Below, piece by piece: positions 1-60,278 of a stretch of 64,000 nucleotides of DNA. The translations under genes and the position numbers were made by a program. Position 1 is the first letter of the stretch, and every line of letters starts with the position of its first letter. The notes beneath the pieces are model-generated. The model did not search any database. It saw only the letters and a program-made list of their open reading frames with translations, and was not told the DNA's origin. Source of the stretch: Cordylochernes scorpioides. Taxonomy: Eukaryota > Arthropoda > Arachnida > Pseudoscorpiones > Chernetidae. The stretch covers positions 17,790,316 through 17,854,315 of the forward strand of contig CP092882.1 in assembly GCA_030710605.1 (NCBI GenBank). Direction: 5' to 3'.

Positions 1-3000
1 ATGGCGTGACTAGATGGCTTGGTATGTATTCTCAACAACCTAGGTTCTAAGTCTCTGTGTTGTACTCAACATGGCGTGACTAGATGGCTTGGTATGTATT
101 CTCAACAACCTAGGTTCTAAGTCTCTGTGTTGTACTCAACATGGCGTGACTAGATGGCTTGGTATGTATTCTCAACAACCTAGGTTCTAAGTCTCTGTGT
201 TGTACTCAACATGGCGTGACTAGATGGCTTGGTATGTATTCTCAACAACCTAGGTTCTAAGTCTCTGTGTTGTACTCAACATGGCGTGACTAGATGGTTT
301 GGTATGTATTCTCAACAACCTAGGTTCTAAGTGTCTGTGTTGTACTCAACATGGCGTGACTAGATGGCTTGGTATGTATTCTCAACAACCTAGGTTCTAA
401 GTCTCTGTGTTGTACTCAACATGGCGTGACTAGATGGCTTGGTATGTATTCTCAACAACCTAGGTTCTAAGTCTCTGTGTTGTACTCAACATGGCGTGAC
501 TAGATGGTTTGGTATGTATTCTCAACAACCTAGGTTCTAAGTCTCTGTGTTGTACTCAACATGGCGTGACTAGATGGTTTGGTATGTATTCTCAACAACC
601 TAGGTTCTCAGTCTCTGTGTTGTACTCAACATGGCGTGACTAGATGGTTTGGTATGTATTCTCAACAACCTAGGTTCTAAGTCTCTGTGTTGTACTCAAC
701 ATGGCGTGACTAGATGGTTTGGTATGTATTCTCAGCAACCTAGGTTCTAAGTCTCTGTGTTGTACTCAACATGGCGTGACTAGATGGCTAGGTATGTATT
801 CTCAACATCCTAGGTTCTAAGTCTCTGTGTTGTACTCAACATGGCGTGACTAGATGGCTTGGTATGTATTCTCAACAACCTAGGTTCTAAGTCTCTGTGT
901 TGTACTCAACATGGCGTGACTAGATGGCTTGGTATGTATTCTCAACAACCTAGGTTCTAAGTCTCTGTGTTGTACTCAACATGGCGTGACTAGATGGCTT
1001 GGTATGTATTCTCAACAACCTAGGTTCTAAGTCTCTGTGTTGTACTCAACATGGCGTGACTAGATGGCTTGGTATGTATTCTCAACAACCTAGGTTCTAA
1101 GTCTCTGTGTTGTACTCAACATGGCGTGACTAGATGGCTTGGTATGTATTCTCAACAACCTAGGTTCTAAGTCTCTGTGTTGTACTCAGACATGGCGTGA
1201 CTAGATGGCTTGGTATGTATTCTCAACAACCTAGGTTCTAAGTCTCTGTGTTGTACTCAACATGGCGTGACTAGATGGTTTGGTATGTATTCTCAACAAC
1301 CTAGGTTCTAAGTCTCTGTGTTGTACTCAACATGGCGTGACTAGATGGCTTGGTATGTATTCTCAACAACCTAGGTTCTAAGTCTCTGTGTTGTACTCAA
1401 CATGGCGTGACTAGATGGCTTGGTATGTATTCTCAACAACCTAGGTTCTAAGTCTCTGTGTTGTACTCAACATGGCGTGACTAGATGGCTTGGTATGTAT
1501 TCTCAACAACCTAGGTTCTAAGTCTCTGTGTTGTACTCAACATGGCGTGACTAGATGGCTTGGTATGTATTCTCAACAACCTAGGTTCTAAGTCTCTGTG
1601 TTGTACTCAACATGGCGTGACTAGATGGCTTGGTATGTATTCTCAACAACCTAGGTTCTAAGTCTCTGTGTTGTACTCAACATGGCGTGACTAGATGGCT
1701 TGGTATGTATTCTCAACAACCTAGGTTCTAAGTCTCTGTGTTGTACTCAACATGGCGTGACTAGATGGCTTGGTATGTATTCTCAACACCTAGGTTCTAA
1801 GTCTCTGTGTTGTACTCAACATGGCGTGACTAGATGGCTTGGTATGTATTCTCAACATCCTAGGTTCTAAGTCTCTGTGTTGTACTCAACATGGCGTGAC
1901 TAGATGGCTTGGTATGTATTCTCAACAACCTAGGTTCTAAGTCTCTGTGTTGTACTCAACATGGCGTGACTAGATGGCTTGGTATGTATTCTCAACAACC
2001 TAGGTTCTAAGTCTCTGTGTTGTACTCAACATGGCGTGACTAGATGGCTTGGTATGTATTCTCAACAACCTAGGTTCTAAGTCTCTGTGTTGTACTCAAC
2101 ATGGCGTGACTAGATGGCTTGGTATGTATTCTCAACAACCTAGGTTCTAAGTCTCTGTGTTGTACTCAGCATGGCGTGACTAGATGGCTTGGTATGTATT
2201 CTCAACAACCTAGGTTCTAAGTCTCTGTGTTGTACTCAACATGGCGTGACTAGATGGTTTGGTATGTATTCTCAACAACCTAGGTTCTAAGTCTCTGTGT
2301 TGTACTCAACATGGCGTGACTAGATGGCTTGGTATGTATTCTCAACAACCTAGGTTCTAAGTCTCTGTGTTGTACTCAACATGGCGTGACTAGATGGCTT
2401 GGTATGTATTCTCAACAACCTAGGTTCTAAGTCTCTGTGTTGTACTCAACATGGCGTGACTAGATGGCTTGGTATGTATTCTCAACAACCTAGGTTCTAA
2501 GTCTCTGTGTTGTACTCAACATGGCGTGACTAGATGGCTTGGTATGTATTCTCAACAACCTAGGTTCTAAGTCTCTGTGTTGTACTCAACATGGCGTGAC
2601 TAGATGGCTTGGTATGTATTCTCAACAACCTAGGTTCTAAGTCTCTGTGTTGTACTCAACATGGCGTGACTAGATGGCTTGGTATGTATTCTCAACAACC
2701 TAGGTTCTAAGTCTCTGTGTTGTACTCAACATGGCGTGACTAGATGGCTTGGTATGTATTCTCAACATCCTAGGTTCTAAGTCTCTGTGTTGTACTCAAC
2801 ATGGCGTGACTAGATGGCTTGGTATGTATTCTCAACATCCTAGGTTCTAAGTCTCTGTGTTGTACTCAACATGGCGTGACTAGATGGCTTGGTATGTATT
2901 CTCAACAACCTAGGTTCTAAGTCTCTGTGTTGTACTCAACATGGCGTGACTAGATGGCTTGGTATGTATTCTCAACAACCTAGGTTCTAAGTCTCTGTGT
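1..3000. repeat. 70-bp satellite array, about 43 copies, cut by the window edge
   Basis: A head-to-tail array of a 70-bp unit starting ATGGCGTGACTAGATGGCTT and ending TTGTACTCAAC. It runs from base 1, so its left edge lies outside the window, and stops abruptly at 3000, where the last unit changes into TTAAGACGTC. Copies are nearly identical. Recurrent single-base variants exist (GGCTT/GGTTT, AACAACC/AACATCC), with rare one-base indels near 1189 and 1787. The unit has stop codons in its ATG frame (ATG GCG TGA), so no protein is implied. High homogeneity suggests recent amplification or gene conversion. Confidence 0.97.
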
Positions 3001-3299
3001 TTAAGACGTCATGGGTAACCTAATCCCCGAGGCCACTCCCGAAGAAGTCTCTCCCTAACCCTAGCTGTAAACATGGCGATAAATCTTGCCGTTTCGGCTC
3101 GTTGTTGCATCAGGGTGTCGCCTTACATCCGTTGGGTGGTCGGAGATTGGTCTCAATACTTTCTGTATCGTTGTTCTCACTTTCTTTTATTGCGCATTTC
3201 TTTGAACTCTTGGAATATATCGATGTCCCAACTTTCTGGGGGATTGCTGCCAGGTCCTTCTCATTCGCTGTTTCTAATTAAAGTCTTTGTTTAATCTTG
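3001..3299. other. Junction sequence between satellite and MITE array
   Basis: About 300 bp of mixed composition, GC-richer than its surroundings, between the 70-bp satellite and the next tandem array. A 73-codon forward frame (3073-3294) covers most of it but shows no recognisable motif. I see no gene. Confidence 0.4.
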
Positions 3300-7422: not shown

Positions 7423-7500
7423 TGCCGGTAGGATAGTGGTCTATTGAGAGCTATTAGGCCGAAATCCTGGTCTCCAGGTGGGCGCTTTGAACTTGTAAAA
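7423..7500 (+). other. Possible tRNA-derived SINE head
   Basis: GGTAGGATAGTGGTCTATTG resembles the 5' part of an Asp/Glu-type tRNA (GGTAGTATAGTGGT) and could hold an A box. About 45 bp further on, GCGCTTTGAACTTG is a poor B-box match. The anticodon arm does not fold convincingly. This is weak evidence for an old tRNA-derived element, not for a functional tRNA gene. Confidence 0.25.
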
Positions 7501-7678
7501 TCTAGTGTTGTTGCTTTTTCATCGACTCGGTTCTGCAAGTTTGCAGGGACGTTAGATATATGGCGCATAGTTGTTGCCTCTATTTTGATGGGAGAGGCGA
7601 TCTTTCTTTTAATTGAAGAATTTATTCTATTCGGGTTTTATTAACACAAGATTTTAAACCTCTCCGTTCTTCCACAGA

Positions 7679-8045
7679 TTTGAATCGCTTCTCGGCTTTT
7701 TGGCTATGGTTAAAGATCTACAGTTTTGAATCGCTTCTCGGCTTTTTGGCTATGGTTAAAGATCTACAGTTTTGAATCACTTCTCGGCCTTTTGGCTATG
7801 GTCAAATATCTACAGATTTGAATCTCTTCTCGGCCTTTTGGCTATGGTCAAAGGTCTACGGTTTTGAATCTCTTCTCGGCTTTTTGGCTATGGTTAAATA
7901 TCTACAGTTTTGAATCGCTTCTGCGCCTTTTGGCTATGGTTAAAGATCTACAGTTTTGAATCGCTTCTCGGCTTTTTGGCTCTATGGTTAAAGATCTACA
8001 GCTTTGAATCACTTCTCGGACTTTTGGTTCTGGTCAAAGTTTTGT
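7679..8045 (+). repeat. 46-bp minisatellite, eight units, core resembling the 5' end of U2 snRNA
   Basis: Units start with TGAATC at about 7681, 7727, 7773, 7819, 7865, 7911, 7957 and 8005. The core of the third unit reads ATCACTTCTCGGCCTTTTGG followed by CTATGGTCAAA. The 5' end of U2 snRNA is ATCGCTTCTCGGCCTTTTGG then CTAAGATCAA, so about 26-27 of 30 positions agree. The U2 branch-point recognition part (GTAGTATCTG) is represented only by a weak ATCTACAG. The last unit is degenerate. The rest of U2 (Sm site, 3' stem-loops) is not visible. An array seeded by a U2 5' fragment is the simplest reading. Confidence 0.85.
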
Positions 8046-10949: not shown

Positions 10950-12435
10950 GCGTGTTTGTCCTTTTTTTCCCCATATCGTCTGTAATTTCCCAGTCAATTT
11001 ACTAGCATCTATTCACCCCCGTTACATTTCTGCTATCGTACGACCTTTATAACATCGATAAATGTTATCAAAAATAACAAACGATACTAAAAAGGTTACT
11101 TTGATAATTCTATATAAATAACTTCATCTACCTCTATGTTTATTTAGCATTATTAATTATTTTAAACATATAATTACGCAATCGTTATAACTTATTAATA
11201 AATATTATATAAAATATTAGCAAACGATACTAAAAATATTACTTTTACAATCACATATAAATAGTTATATACCAATTTTTTGTTGCATTATTAATTATAT
11301 TTAATATATATTTAAACACACACAAATAAATATATAGGAAAATTATTATAAAATACATATTTTTGTGATAAAAACCATTTCGTTTGGAATTAATATTTGG
11401 CAAGATAAATATTGAGGTTAAATGTATTTATTTAGGAGATTGAATGAATTAATATTTAAAATGGGTCAACAGCCCACATTTACAAACGATTTCAATTATT
11501 TAAAGGAATTTTTAAAGTAAAAATTCAAAGTTTTTTTTTTTTTTTTAAGAATTTGTAAATAGTTATCACGTGACTGCTACAAAATTTTATTTAATAATTT
11601 TTAAAAAAATAATAATCAAATTGATAATTATTTATTAAATTCAGTTATAAATGTATAATTATAAAATAAATATCTTAACTATTTACATATAAGAGGAGTC
11701 GAATATATATATATACAAATAAATTGTTATGGCATACTTTCAACACATATTCATTATATAATTAATGATTAATTAAGAAGAATAAAAAAACAATGATAAA
11801 TTATTTCTTCTTGAAAGTTTATATATAGTTTATATTTATGTTTTACTTATACATCTTTTAAAAAATAAACTACAAATCATAGAAAAATAAAAAAAAAATC
11901 AAATATGCCATTTATTCTTTAAAAAATATAGATTTTATAATTTTATAAAAATGATATTTTATATAAAAAGTTTTTAATTTATAATAGCTACACATTTAAA
12001 AAACGCTGAAGAGATATAAAGATATATTATTTTAAATTATATATTAATAAAAAATAAATTATATAAAAATTATCTTATTTCATTAAGCAAGGCGTGGTAT
12101 ATTTCTATTATATAACCATGCATTTTTAAGAAAGCAACCAAGGTCAATCTACTATCTGGCACTCCTGGATGGGGATAGCAGTTGATTATTTACTTTCTAT
12201 GATTAGCTTGAAAGCACACGAATATTTTAAAGTTCATAACATTTTTTAAATAACTATTTATATAGTAAAAATTAAATTTACTATTTAAAAAAAATGGTAG
12301 ATGTTTATGTCTCTTCTCCAACAAAACTACTGAATAAATAATTTAAAATTCTCGTTTTGTACTCTGTGGGGTGATAAACTAAAAATACATTGTTTTAATA
12401 CATTTTTTTAAAGGGAGAGGTGTCACTTTTTGTAT
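10950..12435. other. AT-rich spacer
   Basis: Extremely AT-rich, with T-runs (for example 11530-11546). There is a pair of related short segments (CAAACGATACTAAAAA near 11078 and 11221), hinting at an old local duplication of about 145 bp. Otherwise nothing is recognised. Confidence 0.45.
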
Positions 12436-12439
12436 GTGA

Positions 12440-12600
12440 ATACCATCCTCCCTGCAATTCGGCCCTTGCCACTTATCAGCTTTGTAAATTCGAGCGATTT
12501 CATAACTCTCTCTGGTAGGATGTTATGAAATCGAAGCCGCCCCTGTACTGATGAGAACCAAATCCCAAACCTATAGTATACACAGATTGGCTTTTTTTTC
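12440..12600 (+). ncRNA. Degenerate hammerhead-ribozyme-like element (TGTA/TACA family), copy 1
   Basis: The upstream half holds the family hairpin CGATTTCATAAC...GTTATGAAATCG (about 12493-12534). The ribozyme-like part is 12543-12585: CTGTA, core CTGATGA (12548-12554), a 12-base segment where stem II is largely lost, AAAC (12567-12570; canonical GAAAC), then TATAGTA and TACACAG. The TGTA/TACA pairing that would be stem I is kept as in the 31.5 and 51.0 kb copies. Stem II and the G of GAAA are decayed, so self-cleavage is unlikely in this copy. Confidence 0.5.
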
Positions 12601-12731
12601 TGAATTTGCCTAAACTGGTGTTTTGGCTCATTCTTTATCATTACTAAGTTCTTTTACTATAGAGTGATGAACAAAATGTATCGTTCTCTGATGCATAATT
12701 AAAGGGAGAGATGCTTTTTTTGGTACATATC

Positions 12732-12948
12732 TATACACTCTTGGACGAAACTTAAGCAAGTTGTGGGATTCAGACAATAACTCTGAAAGATATTACAGTG
12801 ACCTTTATTGAATACACACGAGATAACCAAGTGTGAACAAAATTGCCTCTGTCTCCTTCAAAAAAAAAAAAAAAATAATAATAATAAATAGATGACCGGC
12901 GACATCAGAGACTTTCCACTCCATTAAGTTTTGTCGATGAGTATATAT
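12732..12948 (+). mobile_element. Tc1/mariner-like MITE (CTCATGGACAAAAC family)
   Basis: Left end TATACACTCTTGGACGAAAC and right end GTTTTGTCGATGAGTATA are inverted repeats flanked by TA. The interior has the family blocks ATTCAGACAATAACTCTGAA, GTGACCTTTATTGAA, GAGATAACCAAGTGTGAAC and GACCGGCGACATC plus an A-run. Length is about 217 bp. There is no transposase. TA target sites and TIR style suggest Tc1/mariner mobilisation. Confidence 0.88.
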
Positions 12949-13639: not shown

Positions 13640-13860
13640 GCTGGGTAGGCATGGCTCATCAGTAGAGAACCCACCCAGTGTTTTCGCCAGTTTAATCTTC
13701 CCCCATAGAACTATTTCTACACACTGCAAGAATTTAAAAAAAAAGGAATTTAAAATAGCGAGGCCACTGAGAGGATTCACCATTGATGAACCATGCTCTC
13801 CCATTTCTAAATGTTCCATCATTTCTGTATATAAGGTATATAGGAATAGGGTTTTTTTAG
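13640..13860. mobile_element. Foldback/pseudoknot family element, both arms present, diverged
   Basis: Left part GGCATGGCTCATCAGTAGAG ... TTTTCGCCAGTTTAATC is the reverse complement of the family core. The right part GGCCACTGAGAGGATTCACC then ATTGATGAACCATGCTCTCC is the forward core. The two arms face each other across about 70 bp. A T-run follows at about 13853. Mutations in both arms (GATGAA for GATGAG) show it is old. Confidence 0.7.
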
Positions 13861-29500: not shown

Positions 29501-30192
29501 AGGGTTTCCCTCGTCTTTTGTTTACCATTCATAGTTTTGTCGTCCTTGCCTGAAATAAATTGTTGTCTCTTCCTGAAGTTTGTCTTCCCTAATTTTCCAC
29601 GTGGCAATATTATGTTTCTCCTATAGAAGGACTATCATGCTCGAGATTTGAAATAATTTTTTTAGAAGAAACTCATCCCCGGAATCCTGATGTTTTCACC
29701 TTAACAAAAAAGATCATTCTAGTCAGGATATGTAAGTATGGTTTCCATGCGACGGTTAGTTATTCTTGTTGTTTACAAGCCAAGTGGGAGCCGTTGGACT
29801 AGGTCAGTGAAATACTAGTGTGGATGTAGGGCATGTCTTACTGTAGAGAGATAGAGGTCAGTTCTGGTGAAGTATGGCGACCTGGAGAGACAGAAGTGGA
29901 CCGGAATATCTGTGTTACAGCGCGACGACACACTGTAACGACCCTAGTATATAGCTAGCTATCTACGTGAAGTATGTTACTGGAACTACATTGTTCTGTT
30001 GTACAGAGGATGGAGAAATTCGAGGATATCAAAACCGAAATGTTAAAACACACTTTTTAGGAATCTTTTTTTTTTACTAAATGAAAATGTATATTTAGAA
30101 AGAATATAAAATATACCTTTCCTATCATAATAAATGTAAAAACTATACGCCATCTATTGACCAGTCTCTATAATCTAGCAAACTCAGATCGA

Positions 30193-30236
30193 TGACAAAA
30201 CCATAACACCAACTTTGGAAATTTCAGAACGCCTGC
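30193..30236. repeat. Fragment of the 34.0-kb foldback family
   Basis: ACACCAACTTTGGAAATTTC then AGAACGCC matches the arm of the element at 33977-34111 (ACACCAACTTTGGCAAATTC then AGAACGCC). There is no second arm. The surrounding 29.7-30.5 kb has no other recognised feature except GCCATCTATTGACCA at 30150, a relic of another repeat. Confidence 0.6.
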
Positions 30237-30529
30237 CCATCTGGACACCGTGGTTTAATGAAATTATCTTACAAAGAGGTTTGTAGTGGTTGCATAGAAT
30301 CGCTGGACCAATTCTATGGGGTTGAAACCTAGATGTGACAATTTTACCATAATTCAAACAGGTGTCGCATCAATTTTAAAAATAAAAAAGCTCATGTTGA
30401 AGCTGGGTAAGAGTCGGTGTGTTATATATGGGAATAAAATCAACAATGGCAAAATACTGAGATGTCTTTATTTTCAAAATTGTTAAATTGTGTAAAAAGT
30501 GTATTCTTCTTTCTATTCCGGGTTAATTG

Positions 30530-31345: not shown

Positions 31346-31482
31346 GCTGAGAGAGATTACCAAATATTGTTTGTCGTTATGCAAGGAATCTTGCTCTTCA
31401 ATATTGTCATTACCACACATTGATTGAAATTTATAAATATAATACCATATATTCTTGTTGTATTCTATCTCTGCCACTTCAC

Positions 31483-31612
31483 CAGTTTAAACACCTATTT
31501 GGTAAATTTGACCGATTTCATAACTCCTCTCGTAGGATGCTATGAAGCCGTCACTGTACTGATGAGGGCCATAACCCGAATTATCACATTTTGATTTTTT
31601 ACATCTTTAATC
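31483..31612 (+). ncRNA. Hammerhead-ribozyme-like element (TGTA/TACA family), copy 2
   Basis: The family leader TTTGGTAAATTTGACCGATT then TCATAACTCC precedes the core: CTGTA (31554-31558), CTGATGA (31559-31565), stem II GGG-CCATAA-CCC (31566-31577), GAA (31578-31580; the third A of GAAA is T) and, after 19 bases, TTTTTTACA, so that TGTA/TACA closes stem I. Order and spacing fit a stem-I-open hammerhead. The missing A and a poorly paired stem III argue against strong activity in this copy. Confidence 0.6.
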
Positions 31613-32989: not shown

Positions 32990-33140
32990 ACAGCGGTATG
33001 GTAGATTAAACTGGCGAAACCGCTGGGAGGGTTCACCACTGAAGAGCCAGGTCCTCCCATTAATTTTTCCATTGCAGTAAGGGTAGTAGAAATTGTTTAA
33101 TTTCAAAAAAAATATTGCGCGTTTAAAATAGCTTCGAATT
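32990..33140 (+). ncRNA. Pseudoknot-family core, well preserved
   Basis: AAACTGGCGAAACCGCTGGG then AGGGTTCACCACTGAAGAGC then CAGGTCCTCCCATTAATTTT. Helix A CTGGC/GCCAG (33011-33015 with about 33045-33049). Helix B TGGGAGG/CCTCCCA. GATGAG is GAAGAG here. It is followed by CCATTGCAGTAAGGGTAGTA and TTCGAATTTTGATAA, the family's flank and outer arm end. No complete left arm was found. Confidence 0.65.
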
Positions 33141-33149
33141 TTGATAAAT

Positions 33150-33976
33150 GGTTTTGCTAACAAATTCTAAAACGTGAATGTGATTTAATATATAAGAAAA
33201 TATTTTATTAAAGTGTGTGATAAAGAGAGATATGAAAAAAAACGAATTATCTTTGTAAAGATAAATGTATAGATGGTGCCATTTTTCTCTTATCAAGTTA
33301 TATTCTATAAATAACTTTAAATTAAGATCTTTAGTATTATATACAGAATAAAATGAAGAAAGAGACATTAGAATAAAGTTATATATATATATGGGAAATA
33401 TGCACATATAGAGTTATTTTATTTTGATTATCAAATAATAAAAAGTGCAAGAAGGAGTTTTAAAATAAAAATTTAAAATTTTTAAAATTTATCCTTAGAT
33501 GCATATGTGATAGACGTGTTGAGGAAGAGCTCGTGGCTCGAATGCTTGGCCGTTTATGGGTATAATTAATCCTTCAAAGCTGATATCCATAGAGTCCTTA
33601 AATACCCTCACCAAGAAATCCTCTAAAAAGTCGGATATTTAAGCAAAGAGCGCAGCACAATACAATATTAGACCGCTTGGAGGGTTCACCACTGATGAGC
33701 CAGAGGCTTCTTTATGTTATTATTATTATTGCACTAAGAACAGTTTATTAGGGAGGGAAGTATGAAATTTCTCTCTTCACAACTTCGATTAAAAAAAGAT
33801 GTGGGGTCGTTTTTTAAAATTTTCTATAAAGAGATTTGTCCTTTATAATTCTCTTATAAAGATAATAAATTCTCTATTTTTGAGAAATTTTGCCCCGGAA
33901 GGATATTTATCTATAAAAAGTTCCCCCATCTCCTGTCAAAATAGACGCTAAAACCACTTTCAACTATCTCTGAAAA
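33150..33976. other. AT-rich spacer with one pseudoknot-family fragment
   Basis: GACCGCTTGGAGGGTTCACC then ACTGATGAGCCAGAGGC at 33671-33707 is a short family fragment. Otherwise AT-rich without recognised features. GTCCTTTATAATTCTCTTATAA near 33838 and neighbouring AT repeats are unremarkable. Confidence 0.45.
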
Positions 33977-34111
33977 TATCAGATTGGGGACAACACCAAC
34001 TTTGGCAAATTCAGAACGCCCACCAGAAGTTCGGGCTAATGGCCCTTGTCAGTCCATGGCGGGCGTTCTGAATTTGCCAAAGTTGGTGTTGTCTCCGGCC
34101 TGAATCTGATC
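33977..34111. mobile_element. Foldback element, ~50-bp near-perfect arms
   Basis: GGGGACAACACCAACTTTGG then CAAATTCAGAACGCCC pairs with GGGCGTTCTGAATTTGCCAA then AGTTGGTGTTGTCTCC. Pairing extends outward through ATCAGATT/AATCTGAT after a small insertion. The 35-bp loop contains CGGGCTAATGGCCCTTGTC. The reverse-strand 70-codon frame over it is a by-product. One arm recurs at 30.2 kb. Confidence 0.92.
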
Positions 34112-34611
34112 GCTTTGAGAAATGGATGAAAGATGCCGCATAGCTTTGACAACTGGAGAGTTGACCTTTCTTTTTATAGATTTTTATTTGTCTTTTTTTA
34201 TCTGACTGTGAAAATGGACTCATTGACTTACTGGTCTATACAGCCCATCGATGTCCAATAGTAAGTAACCGACACTGTTACAACATTTCCCTGCACCACG
34301 TGTTCCACATATTTAGCTCCACTCCCTTCACCAACTATTCTGTAAGACCCTCTGTTTAAGTCACATTTTTTATCATTCTAAGATTGTTTTCCTACCCAAA
34401 TATATAGATTTACATAACTGGTTCTCACTTCGTAATTCTATCTGCCATCATGTTAGTTACATATTTACATATCATTGTACTTCTATATATATGTCATACA
34501 TTATGCTTTATAAAACGACATTTGAAAATCATCCCGCATGTGTTTCTTTTAAACGAAAAATCTAAATTTATTTTTTAGAAGAAATAACGATTATTTCTAA
34601 CCATAGGGATG

Positions 34612-36839: not shown

Positions 36840-39800
36840 CATCCTAGTTGGCCTGTCTGGTTGGTTGACAGATTCACACGTGATTCTCCAGTGATTGGCC
36901 ACGCTGATGTACCAAAACTTGAACTCTCACTACTTATTGAAATTGAGTCTTAACACATCATAGTTGACCTGTCTGGTTGACAGATTCACACGTGATTCTC
37001 CAGTGATTGGCCACGCTGATGTACCAAAACTTGAACTCTCACTACTTATTGAAATTGAGTCTTAACACATCATAGTTGACCTGTCTGGTTGACAGATTCA
37101 CACGTGATTCTCCAGTGATTGGCCACGCTGATGTACCAAAACTTGAACTCTCACTACTTATTGAAATTGAGTCTTAACACATCATAGTTGACCTGTCTGG
37201 TTGACAGATTCACACGTGATTCTCCAGTGATTGGCCACGCTGATGTACCAAAACTTGAACTCTCACTACTTATTGAAATTGAGTCTTAACACATCATAGT
37301 TGACCTGTCTGGTTGACAGATTCACACGTGATTCTCCAGTGATTGGCCACGCTGATGTACCAAAACTTGAACTCTCACTACTTATTGAAATTGAGTCTTA
37401 ACACATCATAGTTGACCTGTCTGGTTGACAGATTCACACGTGATTCTCCAGTGATTGGCCACGCTGATGTACCAAAACTTGAACTCTCACTACTTATTGA
37501 AATTGAGTCTTAACACATCATAGTTGACCTGTCTGGTTGACAGATTCACACGTGATTCTCCAGTGATTGGCCACGCTGATGTACCAAAACTTGAACTCTC
37601 ACTACTTATTGAAATTGAGTCTTAACACATCATAGTTGACCTGTCTGGTTGACAGATTCACACGTGATTCTCCAGTGATTGGCCACGCTGATGTACCAAA
37701 ACTTGAACTCTCACTACTTATTGAAATTGAGTCTTAACACATCATAGTTGACCTGTCTGGTTGACAGATTCACACGTGATTCTCCAGTGATTGGCCACGC
37801 TGATGTACCAAAACTTGAACTCTCACTACTTATTGAAATTGAGTCTTAACACATCATAGTTGACCTGTCTGGTTGACAGATTCACACGTGATTCTCCAGT
37901 GATTGGCCACGCTGATGTACCAAAACTTGAACTCTCACTACTTATTGAAATTGAGTCTTAACACATCATAGTTGACCTGTCTGGTTGACAGATTCACACG
38001 TGATTCTCCAGTGATTGGCCACGCTGATGTACCAAAACTTGAACTCTCACTACTTATTGAAATTGAGTCTTAACACATCATAGTTGACCTGTCTGGTTGA
38101 CAGATTCACACGTGATTCTCCAGTGATTGGCCACGCTGATGTACCAAAACTTGAACTCTCACTACTTATTGAAATTGAGTCTTAACACATCATAGTTGAC
38201 CTGTCTGGTTGACAGATTCACACGTGATTCTCCAGTGATTGGCCACGCTGATGTACCAAAACTTGAACTCTCACTACTTATTGAAATTGAGTCTTAACAC
38301 ATCATAGTTGACCTGTCTGGTTGACAGATTCACACGTGATTCTCCAGTGATTGGCCACGCTGATGTACCAAAACTTGAACTCTCACTACTTATTGAAATT
38401 GAGTCTTAACACATCATAGTTGACCTGTCTGGTTGACAGATTCACACGTGATTCTCCAGTGATTGGCCACGCTGATGTACCAAAACTTGAACTCTCACTA
38501 CTTATTGAAATTGAGTCTTAACACATCATAGTTGACCTGTCTGGTTGACAGATTCACACGTGATTCTCCAGTGATTGGCCACGCTGATGTACCAAAACTT
38601 GAACTCTCACTACTTATTGAAATTGAGTCTTAACACATCATAGTTGACCTGTCTGGTTGACAGATTCACACGTGATTCTCCAGTGATTGGCCACGCTGAT
38701 GTACCAAAACTTGAACTCTCACTACTTATTGAAATTGAGTCTTAACACATCATAGTTGACCTGTCTGGTTGACAGATTCACACGTGATTCTCCAGTGATT
38801 GGCCACGCTGATGTACCAAAACTTGAACTCTCACTACTTATTGAAATTGAGTCTTAACACATCATAGTTGACCTGTCTGGTTGACAGATTCACACGTGAT
38901 TCTCCAGTGATTGGCCACGCTGATGTACCAAAACTTGAACTCTCACTACTTATTGAAATTGAGTCTTAACACATCATAGTTGACCTGTCTGGTTGACAGA
39001 TTCACACGTGATTCTCCAGTGATTGGCCACGCTGATGTACCAAAACTTGAACTCTCACTACTTATTGAAATTGAGTCTTAACACATCATAGTTGACCTGT
39101 CTGGTTGACAGATTCACACGTGATTCTCCAGTGATTGGCCACGCTGATGTACCAAAACTTGAACTCTCACTACTTATTGAAATTGAGTCTTAACACATCA
39201 TAGTTGACCTGTCTGGTTGACAGATTCACACGTGATTCTCCAGTGATTGGCCACGCTGATGTACCAAAACTTGAACTCTCACTACTTATTGAAATTGAGT
39301 CTTAACACATCATAGTTGACCTGTCTGGTTGACAGATTCACACGTGATTCTCCAGTGATTGGCCACGCTGATGTACCAAAACTTGAACTCTCACTACTTA
39401 TTGAAATTGAGTCTTAACACATCATAGTTGACCTGTCTGGTTGACAGATTCACACGTGATTCTCCAGTGATTGGCCACGCTGATGTACCAAAACTTGAAC
39501 TCTCACTACTTATTGAAATTGAGTCTTAACACATCATAGTTGACCTGTCTGGTTGACAGATTCACACGTGATTCTCCAGTGATTGGCCACGCTGATGTAC
39601 CAAAACTTGAACTCTCACTACTTATTGAAATTGAGTCTTAACACATCATAGTTGACCTGTCTGGTTGACAGATTCACACGTGATTCTCCAGTGATTGGCC
39701 ACGCTGATGTACCAAAACTTGAACTCTCACTACTTATTGAAATTGAGTCTTAACACATCATAGTTGACCTGTCTGGTTGACAGATTCACACGTGATTCTC

Positions 39801-40870
39801 CAGTGATTGGCCACGCTGATGTACCAAAACTTGAACTCTCACTACTTATTGAAATTGAGTCTTAACACATCATAGTTGACCTGTCTGGTTGACAGATTCA
39901 CACGTGATTCTCCAGTGATTGGCCACGCTGATGTACCAAAACTTGAACTCTCACTACTTATTGAAATTGAGTCTTAACACATCATAGTTGACCGTCTGGT
40001 TGACAGATTCACACGTGATTCTCCAGTAATTGGCCACGCTGATGTACCAAAACTTGACCTCTCACTACTTATTGAAATTGAGTCTTAACACATCATAGTT
40101 GACCTGTCTGGTTGACAGATTCACACGTGATTCTCCAGTAATTGGCCACGCTGATGTACCAAAACTTGAACTCTCACTACTTATTGAAATTGAGTCTTAA
40201 CACATCATAGTTGACCTGTCTGGTTGACAGATTCACACGTGATTCTCCAGTGATTGGCCACGCTGATGTACCAAAACTTGAACTCTCACTACTTATTGAA
40301 ATTGAGTCTTAACACATCATAGTTGACCTGTCTGGTTGACAGATTCACACGTGATTCTCCAGTGATTGGCCACGCTGATGTACCAAAACTTGAACTCTCA
40401 CTACTTATTGAAATTGAGTCTTAACACATCATAGTTGACCTGTCTGGTTGACAGATTCACACGTGATTCTCCAGTAATTGGCCACGCTGATGTACCAAAA
40501 CTTGAACTCTCACTACTTATTGAAATTGAGTCTTAACACATCATAGTTGACCTGTCTGGTTGACAGATTCACACGTGATTCTCCAGTAATTGGCCACGCT
40601 GATGTACCAAAACTTGAACTCTCACTACTTATTGAAATTGAGTCTTAACACATCATAGTTGACCTGTCTGGTTGACAGATTCACACGTGATTCTCCAGTG
40701 ATTGGCCACGCTGATGTACCAAAACTTGAACTCTCACTACTTATTGAAATTGAGTCTTAACACATCATAGTTGACCTGTCTGGTTGACAGATTCACACGT
40801 GATTCTCCAGTAATTGGCCACGCTGATGTACCAAAACTTGACCTCTCACTACTTATATTGAAATTGAATA
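36840..40870. repeat. 112-bp satellite array, about 36 copies
   Basis: The unit contains TAGTTGACCTGTCTGGTTGA, CAGATTCACACGTGATTCTC, CAGTGATTGGCCACGCTGAT, GTACCAAAACTTGAACTCTC and ACTACTTATTGAAATTGAGT. The first unit (36845-36960) differs (TAGTTGGCCTGTCTGGTTGG, a 4-bp insertion). From 36961 to about 39990 units look identical. From about 39990 on there is a one-base deletion (GACCGTCTGG), GTGATT to GTAATT changes and two TTGACCTCTC variants. The array ends in a degenerate TATATTGAAATTGAATACAT. No coding potential. The pattern is a homogenised core with a diverged right flank. Confidence 0.97.
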
Positions 40871-50547: not shown

Positions 50548-50934
50548 TTGATTTGATAATGTGTTTTTCAGCAACAGATAATAACGTTATATATTTTGAA
50601 ACGATAATACAATCTTTTTTTTTTTTTGCATCAAGAATGAAAATTTCAGAATTGAAATAACACAAATTTGATTGCATTTTATATTGATACAAAATGGAAA
50701 AATTGAGGGGGTTAGGAAGTAAAATGGTAAATCACATTTATTTTACCTATTTCTCTTTTTGTGATTTCAACTCCTTTCACTTGTAAATAGAAAATTTTAA
50801 TCTAACCATTTTCAAAGGGATCGTTGAATAGGATATATGCAAAGATGGCAATCTCATTTATGCATCAAAACAAATGCATGCAGTTTATCAACTCAGCACA
50901 TAAGATAGAGGTTGTGATGAAGAATGAGCTACAA

Positions 50935-51015
50935 CACACCAGTTTTGGAAAATTTAGACGAATTCTTATCTGTAAATCCACGGTTTTGGGCTATAGCCTT
51001 CATCAGTACAGACAG
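50935..51015 (-). ncRNA. Hammerhead-ribozyme-like element (TGTA/TACA family), copy 3
   Basis: On the reverse strand: CTGTA (51011-51007), CTGATGA (51006-51000), A, stem II GGC-TATA-GCC (50998-50989), C, AAAA (50987-50984; canonical GAAA), CCGTGGATT, then TACAG (50974-50970). Stem I is a perfect 5-bp CTGTA/TACAG. The first G of GAAA is A, and stem III lacks clear pairing. The next block, GAATTCGTCTAAATTTTCC, is the family's other landmark in inverted position compared with 31.5 kb, implying an originally foldback element. Confidence 0.6.
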
Positions 51016-52197: not shown

Positions 52198-52807
52198 AAA
52201 ATATAAGAAAAAAAGGGAAGTGTACAGAGTATAGCAAAATATAAACATAAAAAAAATTAATAAATCTGCTAATAAAATAATAAATACTTTGTTACAATCT
52301 TTATAATGAAATTTATACACAATAACCTAATTAAGACAATTTTGCTCATAAACAGATTGTACACATTTATAACATTGTTTCAAAGAGAAGTATATAGCCA
52401 ATTCTGTTCTAATAGCGATATGTGTATGTTTATTTATTCAACGCAGAAATATTTACGTCACTATGACCTTCAGCCCGCCCCTATATAAAATGGCTATAAT
52501 TTAAAAAATGCTGAAAATAGGAACAAAACCAGTTTGTACCAGGTAATGGAGATCTATAGCTCCCCTGTTTGACGGCTAACTATTCTAATAGTTGCCATCT
52601 AATTAGGGATTCAAACCTTGACCCCTCTCTCTTGTAATCCTATCAAATGATTTGACCCTTGGAGGGAAAAATTTCACTTTTTTTTTTATGACGATGTATC
52701 TATTTCATAGATGCAGTTTTCTGCTTCGATATGATTCAAATAAGATTAAAAATACTATATAATATCTCTCTATTTATTCCTATATTTATCATTATATAAT
52801 CTTATTT

Positions 52808-53000
52808 AAAATTCGAAATAATTTTAAAGGCGTAAGATTCTTTTTGAAAAAATAAACAATTTCTACTGCCCTTACTGCAATGGAAAAATTAATGGGAGGG
52901 CCTGGTTCATCAGTGGTGAACCCTCCCAGCGGTTTCGCCAGTTTAATCTACCATTAATTATCAAAAAGAATCTTACGTCTTTAAAATTATTTCGAATTTT
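52808..53000. mobile_element. Pseudoknot-family foldback, complete with outer arms
   Basis: The outer arms AAAATTCGAAATAATTTTAA then AGGCGTAAGATTCTTTTT and AAAAAGAATCTTACGTCTTT then AAAATTATTTCGAATTTT pair over about 40 bp with one or two mismatches. Inside, on the reverse strand, is AAACTGGCGAAACCGCTGGG then AGGGTTCACCACTGATGAAC then CAGGCCCTCCCATTAATTTT. A GATAACAGATGGCGCG block follows the right arm. This defines an element length of about 193 bp. Confidence 0.88.
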
Positions 53001-53400: not shown

Positions 53401-54209
53401 CTCTGATCCCGGTACAATTTTACTTTTGTATTATTTTCCCATTTAATATATTTTAAAAAATCTTTGTGCTAAATTAAAAGTATGGTTAGAAAAGTACAGT
53501 AATTCCTATAGAAGAGATATGATAGAAGAAAGGGAAGGAGTTTTTCTTTAGTATAATAACAATCGAATTCAAAGAGACTTATCTATCGTTTTCGAAGAAT
53601 ATTTCCTGATCTCCAAAGAAATAAGACAAAAATATGAGTTTATAGCAATCTGGTATAGCAGATACTGTAGACTTATTGTTCCTGTAAGTACAATATACCT
53701 AAGTTATACACAAGTTCGACTTTGTAGTTTGAAGTTACCCTTGAAACCACGTTAATGCTCGCATTCTTGGAGAATTATACTTAGGAAAGAATATATCAGA
53801 GGCCTCCACTCCCCTTGAATGTAATTTTTTTTAAAACGTATATGTGCTGGGTAAAACTCGGGTTTTTACTGTACTGCACACATAAGCATCACATTTAACT
53901 ATGTATAACAATATTGGGTTATTTCAACCATCTTCAAAAAAACCTGTCGATGAGACAGCACATTACTAGACCACCTAACTAACCTATATTTAACTCCCCC
54001 ACCTAACTAACCGAATGGTAACTAGGTCATCGATCGGTCGGTCCCAGGATCGATACGATCCTGGACACAATAACTTACCTTCTCCGGTATATTTACATAT
54101 AAAGAGCCACTTCGATTTGAATCCATGTTTATGAGGATTTTGACGAATCAACTTGTTTAGGTATGATTATAATTAACACAAAGCAATAACGCGCCATCTA
54201 TACAGATAA
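53401..54209. other. Spacer with a short perfect hairpin
   Basis: CCAGGATCGATACGATCCTG then G at about 54046-54066 is a 9-bp perfect hairpin with an ATA loop. Before it lies GATCGGTCGGTCCC. TACTAAC-like and CTAACTAACC repeats occur around 53985-54010. No gene is seen. Confidence 0.45.
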
Positions 54210-54535
54210 AATGAAAGGATTTAAAAGCGCGAATGTTTCTTTTATACATAATACAAACTTCTACTGCCCTTACTGCGATGAAAAATATATTGGGAGGGCT
54301 TGGCTCATCAGTGGTGAACCCTCTCAGCGGTTTATATGCGTATATAAGCAGAATCGTCCAATACAGTATTAGAGCTCTGAGAAGCGGTCTGGTGGATTAT
54401 ATTGGCGAAACCGCTGAGAGGGTTCACCACTGATGAGCCAAGCTCTCCCAATATATTTTTCATCGCAGTAAGGGCAGTAGAAGTTTGTTTTATGTATAAA
54501 AGAAACATTCGTGCTTATAAATCCTTTCATTTTAT
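54210..54535. mobile_element. Pseudoknot-family foldback, long form with central spacer
   Basis: Left arm AAGCGCGAATGTTTCTTTTA then TACATAATACAAACTTCTAC, through GGGCTTGGCTCATCAGTGGT then GAACCCTCTCAGCGG. Centre GCGTATATAAGCAGAATCGT then CCAATACAGTATTAGAGCTC. Right arm ATTGGCGAAACCGCTGAGAG then GGTTCACCACTGATGAGCCA then AGCTCTCCCA, ending TATAAAAGAAACATTCGTGC. Helix A here is TTGGC/GCCAA instead of CTGGC/GCCAG, a compensatory change. Helix B has one mismatch and one wobble. Short reverse and forward frames through it are by-products. Confidence 0.88.
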
Positions 54536-54547
54536 GATTATAATTAT

Positions 54548-55185: not shown

Positions 55186-56015
55186 GTACTACGAAAATTC
55201 TTCCTCTCAAGCAGGGTAGGTCGATCAAATTGATACTTGTAGATTGTCTTCACAACCGATATTCCCCGAGACTAGGCTGACGAGTCCACAGGTCTCTCAG
55301 GAGTAGGCGAACTGAGAGTTTTGAGATAGTGGGCAGTAAACCGGCGTGTAAAACGGTATGTAAAATTATTCCTCTCAACCTGGGTAGGTCTACCAAATTG
55401 ATACTTGTAGATTGTCTTCACAACCGATATTCCCTGAGACTAAGCTGACGAGTCCACAGCAGTAGGCGACCTGAGAGAGAGTTTTGAGATGGTGGGCAGT
55501 AAACCAGTGTGTAAAACGGTATGTAAAATTCTTCCTCTCAACCTGGGAAGGTCTACCAAATTGATACTTGTAGATTGTCTTCATAACCTATATTCCCCGA
55601 GACTAGGCTGACGAGTCCACAGGTCTCTCAGGAGTAGGCGAACTGAGTTTTGAGATAGTGGGCAGTAAACCAGTGTGTAAAACGGTATGTAAAATTCTTC
55701 CTCTCAACCTGGGAAGGTCTACCAAATTGATACTTGTAGATTGTCTTCATAACCTATATTCCCCGAGACTAGGCTGACGAGTCCACAGCAGTAGGCGACC
55801 TGAGAGAGTTTTGAGATGGTGGGCAGTAAACCGGCGTGTAAAACGGTATGTAAAATTCTTCCTCTCAACCTGGGTAGATCGACCAAATTGATACTTGTAG
55901 ATTGGCTTCACAACCGATATTCCCCGAGACTAGGCTGACGAGTCCACAGCAGTAGGCGACCTGAGAGAGAGTTTTGAGATGGTGGGCAGTAAACCGGTGT
56001 GTAAAACGGGGTCAG
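55186..56015. repeat. ~165-bp tandem array, five units, from the IYKYHLG protein-like repeat
   Basis: Units start at AAAATT(C) near 55194, 55362, 55525, 55691 and 55852 (periods 161-168). Each contains CTCTCAACCTGGGTAGGTCT, ATTGATACTTGTAGATTGTC, TTCACAACCGATATTCCCCG, GACTAGGCTGACGAGTCCAC and GTGGGCAGTAAACCGG. Two subtypes alternate with or without an extra GGTCTCTCAGGA. On the reverse strand the unit reads VVKTIYKYQF.RPTLLERKNF, clearly related to TIYKYHLG...LPTLWERTL at 31 kb. After the array comes GGGGTCAGGTGACCTCAAG. Confidence 0.9.
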
Positions 56016-59847: not shown

Positions 59848-60278
59848 TCAATATTTATTTCAAAGAGAAATATCTACTATTTCTAACTTTTTTTGAATGA
59901 CGTATGAAAGGGTGAAAATATGAAGAGTGATGGTCTATATATGATTGGATGACGTATGAAAGGGTGAAAATATGAAGAGTAATGGCAAACGGAAAAATAA
60001 AAGTGTCCAGGGGCGGGAATCGAACCCACAACCCTCCGCTTACCGGGCAGATGCCATGTCCACTAGGCTACCCTGGACGTATCTTTCCGTTCGTAACTAA
60101 TACTTAAAGTAACTTCAATATTTATTTCAAAGAGAAATATCTACTATTTCTAACTTTTTTTGGATGACGTATGAAAGGGTGAAAATATGAAGAGTGATGG
60201 TCTATATATGATTGGATGACGTATGAAAGGGTGAAAATATGAAGAGTAATGGCGAACGGAAAAATAAAAGTGTCCAGT
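59848..60278. repeat. Local tandem duplication (~269 bp) carrying SINE family B
   Basis: AATATTTATTTCAAAGAGAA then ATATCTACTATTTCTAAC occurs at 59848 and again at 60117. GATGACGTATGAAAGGGTGA then AAATATGAAGAGT occurs twice in each unit. The first unit continues through a tRNA-like head (60005-60080). The second stops at GTGTCCAG (60278), exactly where the head would begin, and joins unrelated TATATTGTTTGG. Confidence 0.9.
60005..60080 (-). other. tRNA-Thr(GGT)-like SINE head (family B)
   Basis: On the reverse strand: acceptor TCCAGGG/CCCTGGA, positions 8-9 TA, D-stem GCC/GGC, anticodon stem TCTGC/GCGGA with loop CCGGTAA (anticodon GGT if standard), T-arm GTGGG-TTCGATT-CCCGC. B box GGTTCGATTCC and A box TAGCCTAGTGG are good. 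Position 33 is C instead of the nearly invariant T, there is no 3' T-run, and downstream comes the SINE body seen also at 34.6 kb. I therefore call it a tRNA-derived SINE head and not a functional tRNA gene, though it folds well. Confidence 0.6.

What the first reader, a model, noticed from the sequence alone, without database searches (positions are those of the whole stretch)
50935..51015. Three separated copies keep one hammerhead-type fold with the same TGTA/TACA stem I
At 12543-12585, 31554-31603 and 51011-50970 (reverse) the order CTGTA - CTGATGA - stem II - (G/A)AA(A) - short spacer - TACA(G) is preserved although the rest of the repeats has diverged. Stem II differs in sequence but still pairs in two copies (GGG/CCC; GGC/GCC). 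Preserved pairing across diverged copies suggests the ancestor carried a working type-I-like ribozyme, as known for retrozymes and Penelope-like elements. Each copy has at least one defect (AAAC for GAAAC, GAAT, weak stem III), so present-day cleavage is doubtful.
Basis: partly seen in the sequence, partly recalled or inferred. Interest (0 to 1): 0.75.

Follow-up and report, generated by a model that had tools for sequence, protein, structure and literature searches.

The report
Self-cutting RNA repeats that jump
Three worn repeats in this stretch are fossils of a mobile element of about 320 letters that carries a self-cutting RNA, and younger copies elsewhere in the same genome show, through their paired, mirror-image insertions, which kind of copying enzyme probably moves them.

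Summary
The three sites are decayed copies of one dispersed repeat. The consensus of 34 genomic copies (c1 is one of them) contains a complete minimal type I hammerhead: CCTGTA-CTGATGA-GGGC/GCCC-GAAA-CCATGG-TA-TACAGG. No window copy is intact. A model built only from copies outside the window finds all three (E 2e-11 to 2e-7); Rfam misses them and even near-perfect copies. A palindromic stem III makes it a dimer-type ribozyme in a co-fold. The unit is 323 nt, often tandem. A young 319-nt relative (337 matches, all listed rows at 100%) carries compensatory stem I changes. All 20 young sites examined, 10 of them chosen for showing both strands, are head-to-head pairs of tandem arrays. In 19 of 19 fully read sites one arm stops near unit position 142 and the other near 177. 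Sixteen of 20 lie in (TA)n; the other four show 12-13 shared flanking bases. Head-to-head copies with an optional tail are a Penelope-like-element hallmark (PMC3846280), so a Penelope-type enzyme copying from both sides of a staggered break is most likely. Circular template: possible, not shown. Donor element: not found.

The parts
12354..12735 (+). copy c1 of the family-1 unit: unit position about 71, through the ribozyme, to about 150 of the next unit
   Evidence: blastn to the unit; HMM of family-1 copies, E 1.2e-70 for 12451-12735 and 2.2e-11 for 12354-12454
12542..12586 (+). decayed hammerhead of c1 (G of GAAA lost, two stem II pairs broken, 2-nt insertion in stem I)
   Evidence: model R1 43.5 bits, E 1.1e-10
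31470..31580 (+). copy c2 of the family-1 unit, truncated after the ribozyme
   Evidence: HMM E 1.2e-32
31553..31590 (+). decayed hammerhead of c2 (stem III lost, stem I 3' strand unsure)
   Evidence: model R1 33.3 bits, E 1.5e-7
50851..51015 (-). copy c3 of the family-1 unit
   Evidence: HMM E 3.2e-23
50969..51012 (-). decayed hammerhead of c3 (G of GAAA changed to A, outer stem III pair broken; stem I and three of four stem II pairs kept)
   Evidence: model R1 45.7 bits, E 2.3e-11; sequence
7438..7609 (+). old relative of the second (319-nt) family, with a decayed hammerhead at 7437-7476
   Evidence: nhmmer with the family-2 unit, E 1.7e-19; model R1 only E 0.61
33884..34069 (-). old relative of the second family, left arm of a head-to-head pair
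   Evidence: nhmmer E 1.2e-16; decayed core at 34052-34021, R1 only E 1.3
34054..34183 (+). right arm of the same head-to-head pair
   Evidence: nhmmer E 2.1e-5; the arms form the 33992-34090 palindrome
30116..30256 (-). old fragment of the second family
   Evidence: nhmmer E 1.3e-11

Best explanation
The three sites are dead copies of a non-coding, non-autonomous retroelement whose unit (323 nt here, 319 nt in a young sister family) carries a minimal type I hammerhead. Shown: the consensus ribozyme, stem I changes that keep pairing between subfamilies, tandem units, head-to-head paired insertions, two fixed 3' stop points about 35 nt apart used once each per insertion, a target bias for (TA)n, and 12-13 shared flanking bases at the sites where they can be read. 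Inferred: tandem transcripts fold pairs of hammerheads into a dimer through the palindromic stem III and cut themselves. A Penelope-type endonuclease/reverse transcriptase makes a staggered cut in an AT-rich site. Each freed DNA 3' end primes copying of the element RNA at its own internal start site (near position 142 on one side, near 177 on the other). Both cDNAs run over one or more units and meet head to head at arbitrary internal points. The multi-unit arms need a template longer than one cut monomer, either a circle or an uncut multimer.
For: Consensus ribozyme (grammar in 0 of 20,000 shuffles). Compensatory stem I changes. Dimer co-fold with 8-bp stem III, -35.8 kcal/mol, against -12.2 for the best monomer fold, which is not the hammerhead. 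Unit fold z -7.4. Family 1: of 26 neighbouring tract pairs 23 are head-to-head, 2 tail-to-tail, 1 direct; 3' ends cluster at 140-163 (29 of 100) and 168-184 (28 of 100). Family 2: 10 of 10 sites read through are head-to-head pairs; 10 more, chosen because both strands were listed, have the same order; 19 of 19 sites with both ends read have one short and one long end, and the four sites without a long (TA)n run show 12-13 shared flanking bases. The genome holds GIY-YIG frames: 146 matches; all 11 close pairs are head-to-head. One has RT-like sequence before the GIY-YIG and a hammerhead core in its 3' flank. Inverted pLTRs with an optional 31-bp tail: PMC3846280 (passages). An Anolis element cuts and extends both strands and starts at two internal sites: PMC11167929 (main text).
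Against: No autonomous element sharing the unit was found; the canonical-order element sampled shows only a 37-base match to unit 2 (73%, E 0.003, in its coding part) and none with model R1. 5' ends do not stop at the predicted cleavage site (inner ends scattered), so the insertions hold no direct trace of cleavage, and in vitro the Anolis element did not need cleavage for insertion. One arm of 13.2 units has a variant in 7 units only, which a single uniform circle would not give. Shared flanking bases in the old family-1 insertions are barely above chance, and no shuffle control was run for the four young sites. 43 of 100 family-1 tracts end outside the two 3' zones.
Confidence: 0.78

Rival explanations
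1. Same element and enzyme class, but the template is a long uncut multimeric transcript of a tandem locus, not a ribozyme-made circle; the ribozyme acts elsewhere in the cycle.
For: Arms of up to 13.2 units; a variant present in only 7 units of that arm; in the Anolis element unprocessed RNA was judged the dominant substrate (PMC11167929).
Against: It does not explain why ribozyme pairing is kept through compensatory changes. Arm lengths and inner stop points look unrelated between the two arms of a site, which fits a circle as well as a multimer.
Confidence: 0.4
2. An ordinary satellite DNA spread and inverted by recombination, with the hammerhead as a passenger.
For: Tandem arrays of near-identical units exist.
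Against: 34 scattered young places (read off the cut listing), fixed outer ends, one short and one long end at 19 of 19, 12-13 shared flanking bases at all four sites where they can be read, and TA-repeat targets at 16 of 20 point to insertion events.
Confidence: 0.05
3. Mobilised by an ordinary LINE with twin priming, not by a Penelope-type enzyme.
For: LINE twin priming also gives inverted copies (recalled); frames that look LINE-like by eye occur in flanks (not scanned against a library).
Against: No poly-A tail directly at the ends printed. Both outward ends are 3' ends at fixed sites about 35 nt apart, as described for Penelope-like elements.
Confidence: 0.1
4. Chance resemblance or a C/D-box snoRNA-derived retroposon (UGAUGA as a C box).
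For: Rfam's only hits on c1 and c3 at E up to 10 are C/D snoRNAs at E 1.5-8.9.
Against: Those hits are far below gathering scores; the genomic consensus is a full hammerhead.
Confidence: 0.02

Closest known systems
Metazoan non-LTR retrozymes (Cervera and de la Pena 2020, PMC7229834)
   Same: Tandem repeats of 150-450 bp with type I hammerheads and no LTR or PBS; strongly self-paired RNA; amphibian members work best as dimers.
   Different: Those described carry mostly classical hammerheads; here the ribozyme is the minimal, Penelope-like kind with a palindromic stem III. The sections I read describe no head-to-head paired arrays or fixed pair of 3' ends. Circular RNA is not tested here.
Penelope-like elements and their pLTRs (PMC3846280, PMC11167929)
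   Same: Head-to-head inverted copies, partial tandems, an optional 31-bp tail on one inverted end, AT-rich targets, flanking duplications, minimal hammerheads.
   Different: The unit here is too short to code for the enzyme and stands as free multimeric arrays; no coding element with this unit was found.
Small dimeric hammerheads of Penelope-like elements (Lunse et al. 2017, not held; known from citations in PMC7761336)
   Same: Minimal type I core with tiny or missing stem III that may cleave as a dimer.
   Different: Sequence comparison with their set was not possible.
Newt and axolotl satellite hammerheads (330-350 bp repeats, PMC7229834)
   Same: Similar unit length, weak palindromic stem III, dimeric action.
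   Different: Sequence relation not tested.

Membership tests
Hammerhead ribozyme, type I | Conserved core CUGANGA ... GAAA and UH at the cut site | tested here: met
   Both family units; 40 of 72 aligned copies keep CTGANGA plus GAA (these are best matches, so not a random sample); window copies fail
Hammerhead ribozyme, type I | Three stems with stem I open to the outside | tested here: met
   6, 4 and 3 bp in the family-1 consensus; 85.5% of cells paired against 17-45% for slid controls, but 84.4% for within-pair shuffles
Hammerhead ribozyme, type I | Match to an Rfam hammerhead family | tested here: not met
   No hammerhead match at E up to 10 in the window, in short stretches on c1 and c3, or on 5 loci of which L015, L053 and L060 meet the strict grammar; taken as a blind spot of those models
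Hammerhead ribozyme, type I | Self-cleavage | not testable with these tools
   Needs in-vitro transcription
Metazoan non-LTR retrozyme | Tandem repeat of 150-450 bp bearing a type I hammerhead | tested here: met
   323- and 319-nt units, 1.2 to 13.2 per arm in family 2
Metazoan non-LTR retrozyme | Accumulates as circular RNA | not testable with these tools
   No RNA data
Penelope-like element | Reading frame with RT and GIY-YIG endonuclease | tested here: not met
   A unit of 319-323 nt is too short; no coding copy recognised in the flanks of 90 loci by eye among frames of 110 aa or more (no library scan)
Penelope-like element | Head-to-head inverted copies with a tail of about 30-40 nt on one of them | tested here: met
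   One short and one long end at 19 of 19 sites; 31-bp tail described in PMC3846280
Penelope-like element | Target-site duplication | tested here: inconclusive
   12-13 shared bases at all four sites without a long (TA)n run, partly overlapping the element end and without a shuffle control; ambiguous inside (TA)n; weak in old family-1 copies

The most novel reading that the evidence does not exclude
Each young insertion is a snapshot of two-sided rolling-circle reverse transcription: a Penelope-type enzyme opens a staggered break and both DNA ends copy a small ribozyme-made RNA circle, often several times, starting at two different fixed points, until the two tandem cDNAs join head to head. 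That would assign the unknown driver of animal retrozymes and give the minimal Penelope hammerhead a job: making the circle.
Probability: 0.4. Interest if true: 0.78.

Novelty: new variant of a known kind. Interest (0 to 1): 0.64.

Why it matters
A 2020 review (PMC7761336, passages read) says that animal retrozyme repeats show no conserved motif that would help deduce which autonomous element moves them, and that the activity and role of the minimal Penelope hammerheads are still a mystery. This genome has a young family with well over a hundred near-identical units whose ends point to a Penelope-type enzyme, so both questions become testable on defined RNA and target sequences. It also shows that the present Rfam hammerhead models overlook this kind of ribozyme.

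Tried and rejected
Rejected: family-1 5' ends at the exact cleavage site. A first count showed a pile-up at unit position 1, but the query was linear; with wrap-around alignment it dissolved into a mild excess at 301-323: 10 of 47 flanking tracts, 3.3 expected. (computed a probability with 11 by miscount; it is not used. Weak: shared bases around family-1 insertions (3 of 53 single tracts with 10 or more, 0.6 expected; 0 of 23 pairs, 0.5 expected). Not found: a coding element that shares the unit; L111 has GIY-YIG near the N-terminus, no CTGANGA and no R1 match better than E 0.16. Not possible: a genome search with the covariance model. Never answered: a genome-wide count of ends in (TA)n (and repeats). 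Before the family-1 end counts 7 of 60 loci were dropped as duplicates or overlaps (L006, L008, L046, L050, L052, L058, L060; for L052 this was a guess not checked), as were tracts under 60 bp. Some head-to-head neighbours overlap by up to 67 nt because the unit has self-complementary parts. Of 94 extracted hammerhead stretches 72 distinct ones of 42-44 nt went into A1. Family-2 sites: 10 came with the best matches plus L053; 10 more were picked because both strands were listed; 14 further listed places were not read. In one search all 19 sites with both ends read were counted; the 20th (C9) has one end read.

Full report
What was claimed and what is there. The three stretches exist as described at 12543, 31554 and 51011, with the caveat that the TACA of the second copy is not the aligned partner strand. 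They share flanking sequence and so are copies of one repeat. CTGTACTGATGA occurs exactly three times in the window. The window is a piece of a genome of 2.62 Gb in 24 contigs, so a eukaryote; it is not named and I did not identify it.

The family. A search of the same genome with the c1 region gave 2324 first-look candidates, of which 40 were scored and 40 matches listed, one of them c1 itself; a search with the consensus unit gave 8421 candidates, 40 scored, 104 matches. These candidate numbers are not copy counts, but the repeat is clearly abundant. The majority consensus of 34 copies from 30 loci (c1 and two near-duplicate pairs among them) contains CCTGTA CTGATGA GGGC CAAA GCCC GAAA CCATGG TA TACAGG: stem I 6 bp, stem II 4 bp, stem III ACC/GGT around AT, cut predicted after the A before TACAGG. 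Both family units satisfy a strict hammerhead grammar and 0 of 20,000 single-letter shuffles of unit 1 do. A covariance model built from 72 copies outside the window finds c3, c1 and c2 at E 2.3e-11, 1.1e-10 and 1.5e-7. Rfam finds no hammerhead in the window or on 5 loci, 3 of which hold full-grammar copies, so its silence says little here.

The ribozyme. Long matches of family 1 lie mostly at 83-90% of the queries. In 72 distinct aligned copies, which are best matches and not a random sample, 40 keep core and GAA and 16 also keep at least 12 of 13 pairs; no window copy meets the strict grammar. Within one decaying family covariation is not expected. Across subfamilies stem I shows two pairs with double changes, U-A to G-C in 5 rows and G-C to A-U in 4 of 72 rows; since rows are related these may be as few as two events. 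The controls are mixed: cells changed on both sides (19 against 9.1) and the covariation score are reached by only 1 of 500 shuffles each, but the number of pairs with such changes (7 against 5.7) does not stand out, and stem II has only 3 such cells. The palindrome ACCAUGGU in stem III lets two ribozymes pair: the co-fold of two 43-nt motifs is the dimeric hammerhead with an 8-bp stem III at -35.8 kcal/mol, while a single motif folds otherwise at -12.2. The family-2 unit is strongly self-paired (z -7.4, 0 of 100 shuffles as good).

The young family. A search with a tandem unit found in locus L053 gave 337 matches (40 of 812 candidates scored); every listed row is 100% (rounded) over 319 bases, at 34 places, and the list is cut. 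Its hammerhead, CCTGGA CTGACGA GGGC CATCA GCCC GAAA CCATGG TC TCCAGG, has the compensated stem I. I read 10 sites from the loci that came with the best matches and L053 and the outer ends of 10 more, picked because both strands were listed; 14 listed places were not read. All 20 have left arms on the minus strand and right arms on the plus strand, that is, head to head. In the 10 sites read, arms hold 1.2 to 13.2 units (one arm runs off the fetched stretch). In all 19 sites with both ends read, one outer end stops at unit position 142-145 and the other at 170-178, never two alike (in one site an inserted AA makes the automatic stop read 164). If each arm chose freely, 19 of 19 would have a chance of about 2 in a million. 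The inner ends are scattered and are joined with overlaps of up to 4 nt or fillers of up to 65 nt. At 16 of 20 sites the ends hold TA runs of 12 or more bases on at least one side; the other four are AT-rich or mixed and show 12-13 shared bases, part of which can overlap the element end, with no shuffle control run.

Family 1 shows the same anatomy in worn form: among 26 neighbouring tract pairs 23 are head to head, 2 tail to tail, 1 direct; 3' ends cluster in two zones, 29 of 100 at 140-163 and 28 of 100 at 168-184, 43 elsewhere, and of the 9 head-to-head pairs with both ends in a zone (of 24) 8 have one of each; TA runs of 6 or more follow 32% of 57 such ends against 8% of background stretches. 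The window itself has an old head-to-head pair at 33884-34183.

What moves it. PMC3846280 (passages) describes for Penelope elements of a rotifer an inverted head-to-head pLTR, an optional 31-bp tail on one of the inverted pLTRs, partial tandems and duplications of 8-10 bp. PMC11167929 (abstract and main text) shows that a purified Anolis Penelope-like enzyme cuts and extends both strands, starts copying at two internal sites, prefers AT-rich DNA, and carries a protein-assisted hammerhead whose cutting is not needed for insertion in vitro. The match in anatomy is close. The genome has many GIY-YIG reading frames (146 matches from 150 scored of 17015 candidates), and all 11 neighbouring pairs closer than 6 kb are head to head. 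Two were sampled. L111 has its GIY-YIG near the N-terminus (Pfam E 2e-7), RT-like sequence behind it by eye (no Pfam hit) and no hammerhead core. L113/L112 has RT-like sequence before the GIY-YIG (RVT_1 only E 0.023, below Pfam's cut-off and little better than unrelated families; the call rests on recalled motifs) and a CTGACGA ... GAAAC core with a 7-bp stem II in the 3' flank; that stretch folds no better than shuffles (z -0.5) and R1 does not find it. Neither shares the unit sequence beyond a 37-base match at E 0.003, so the driver's class is inferred from anatomy, not from a shared end.

Template. The arms are longer than one cut monomer and their inner ends are not at the cut site, so the template was not a simple ribozyme-cut linear monomer. 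A circle or an uncut multimer both fit. One 13.2-unit arm with a variant in 7 units speaks against a single uniform circle there, unless changed later. I found no variant pattern that favours the circle.

Novelty. Hammerhead retrozymes in animals (PMC7229834: abstract, results parts 1-2 of 3, discussion) and minimal hammerheads in Penelope-like elements are known; PMC7761336 (passages) names Penelope-like elements as likely drivers and says no conserved motif reveals the driver; PMC6155905 was seen in passages. I did not see paired head-to-head tandem arrays of ribozyme units with one short and one long end in the listings or in what I read; Cervera 2014 and Lunse 2017 are not held, and a 2021 paper on permuted Penelope-like elements with microsatellite bias (recalled) did not appear, so this is not proof of absence.

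Noticed in passing
window 61022-60968 (-): Twister-type P1 ribozyme match, 35.2 bits (gathering 67.2), E 2.1e-6 on the short stretch; the conserved CCGGUCCCAAGCCCGG core is intact but other stems are worn.
   Followed up: partly
window 7674-8039: Tandem of about eight 46-bp units that look like the start of U2 snRNA (recalled resemblance; sub-threshold Rfam U2 match at 7822-7952, E 0.18).
   Followed up: no
window 1-3001 and 36862-40867: Long tandem arrays with 70-bp and 112-bp units, 99% matches.
   Followed up: no
window 55194-56009: Tandem of about five 163-bp units holding CTGACGAGTCC; I see no GAAA in the fitting place, so it is probably not a hammerhead (by eye).
   Followed up: partly
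window, e.g. 13642-13701, 32998-33111, 52796-52953, 54199-54542: Another repeat family, often as inverted pairs, with CACTGATGA(GCC) after a GGCGAAAC stretch; may be a different folded element.
   Followed up: no
L112 470-530 (G000:C1:119841149-119841209): Hammerhead-like core CTGACGA, 7-bp stem II, GAAAC in the 3' flank of an element with RT-like sequence before GIY-YIG; fold z only -0.5.
   Followed up: partly
L111 (G000:C22:25101178 onwards): GIY-YIG domain near the N-terminus followed by RT-like sequence, as in permuted Penelope-like elements (recalled), with an inverted 280-bp copy upstream.
   Followed up: partly
window 60003-60078 (-): tRNA-Thr (GGT) gene or tRNA-like repeat head, the only Rfam match above gathering score.
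   Followed up: no
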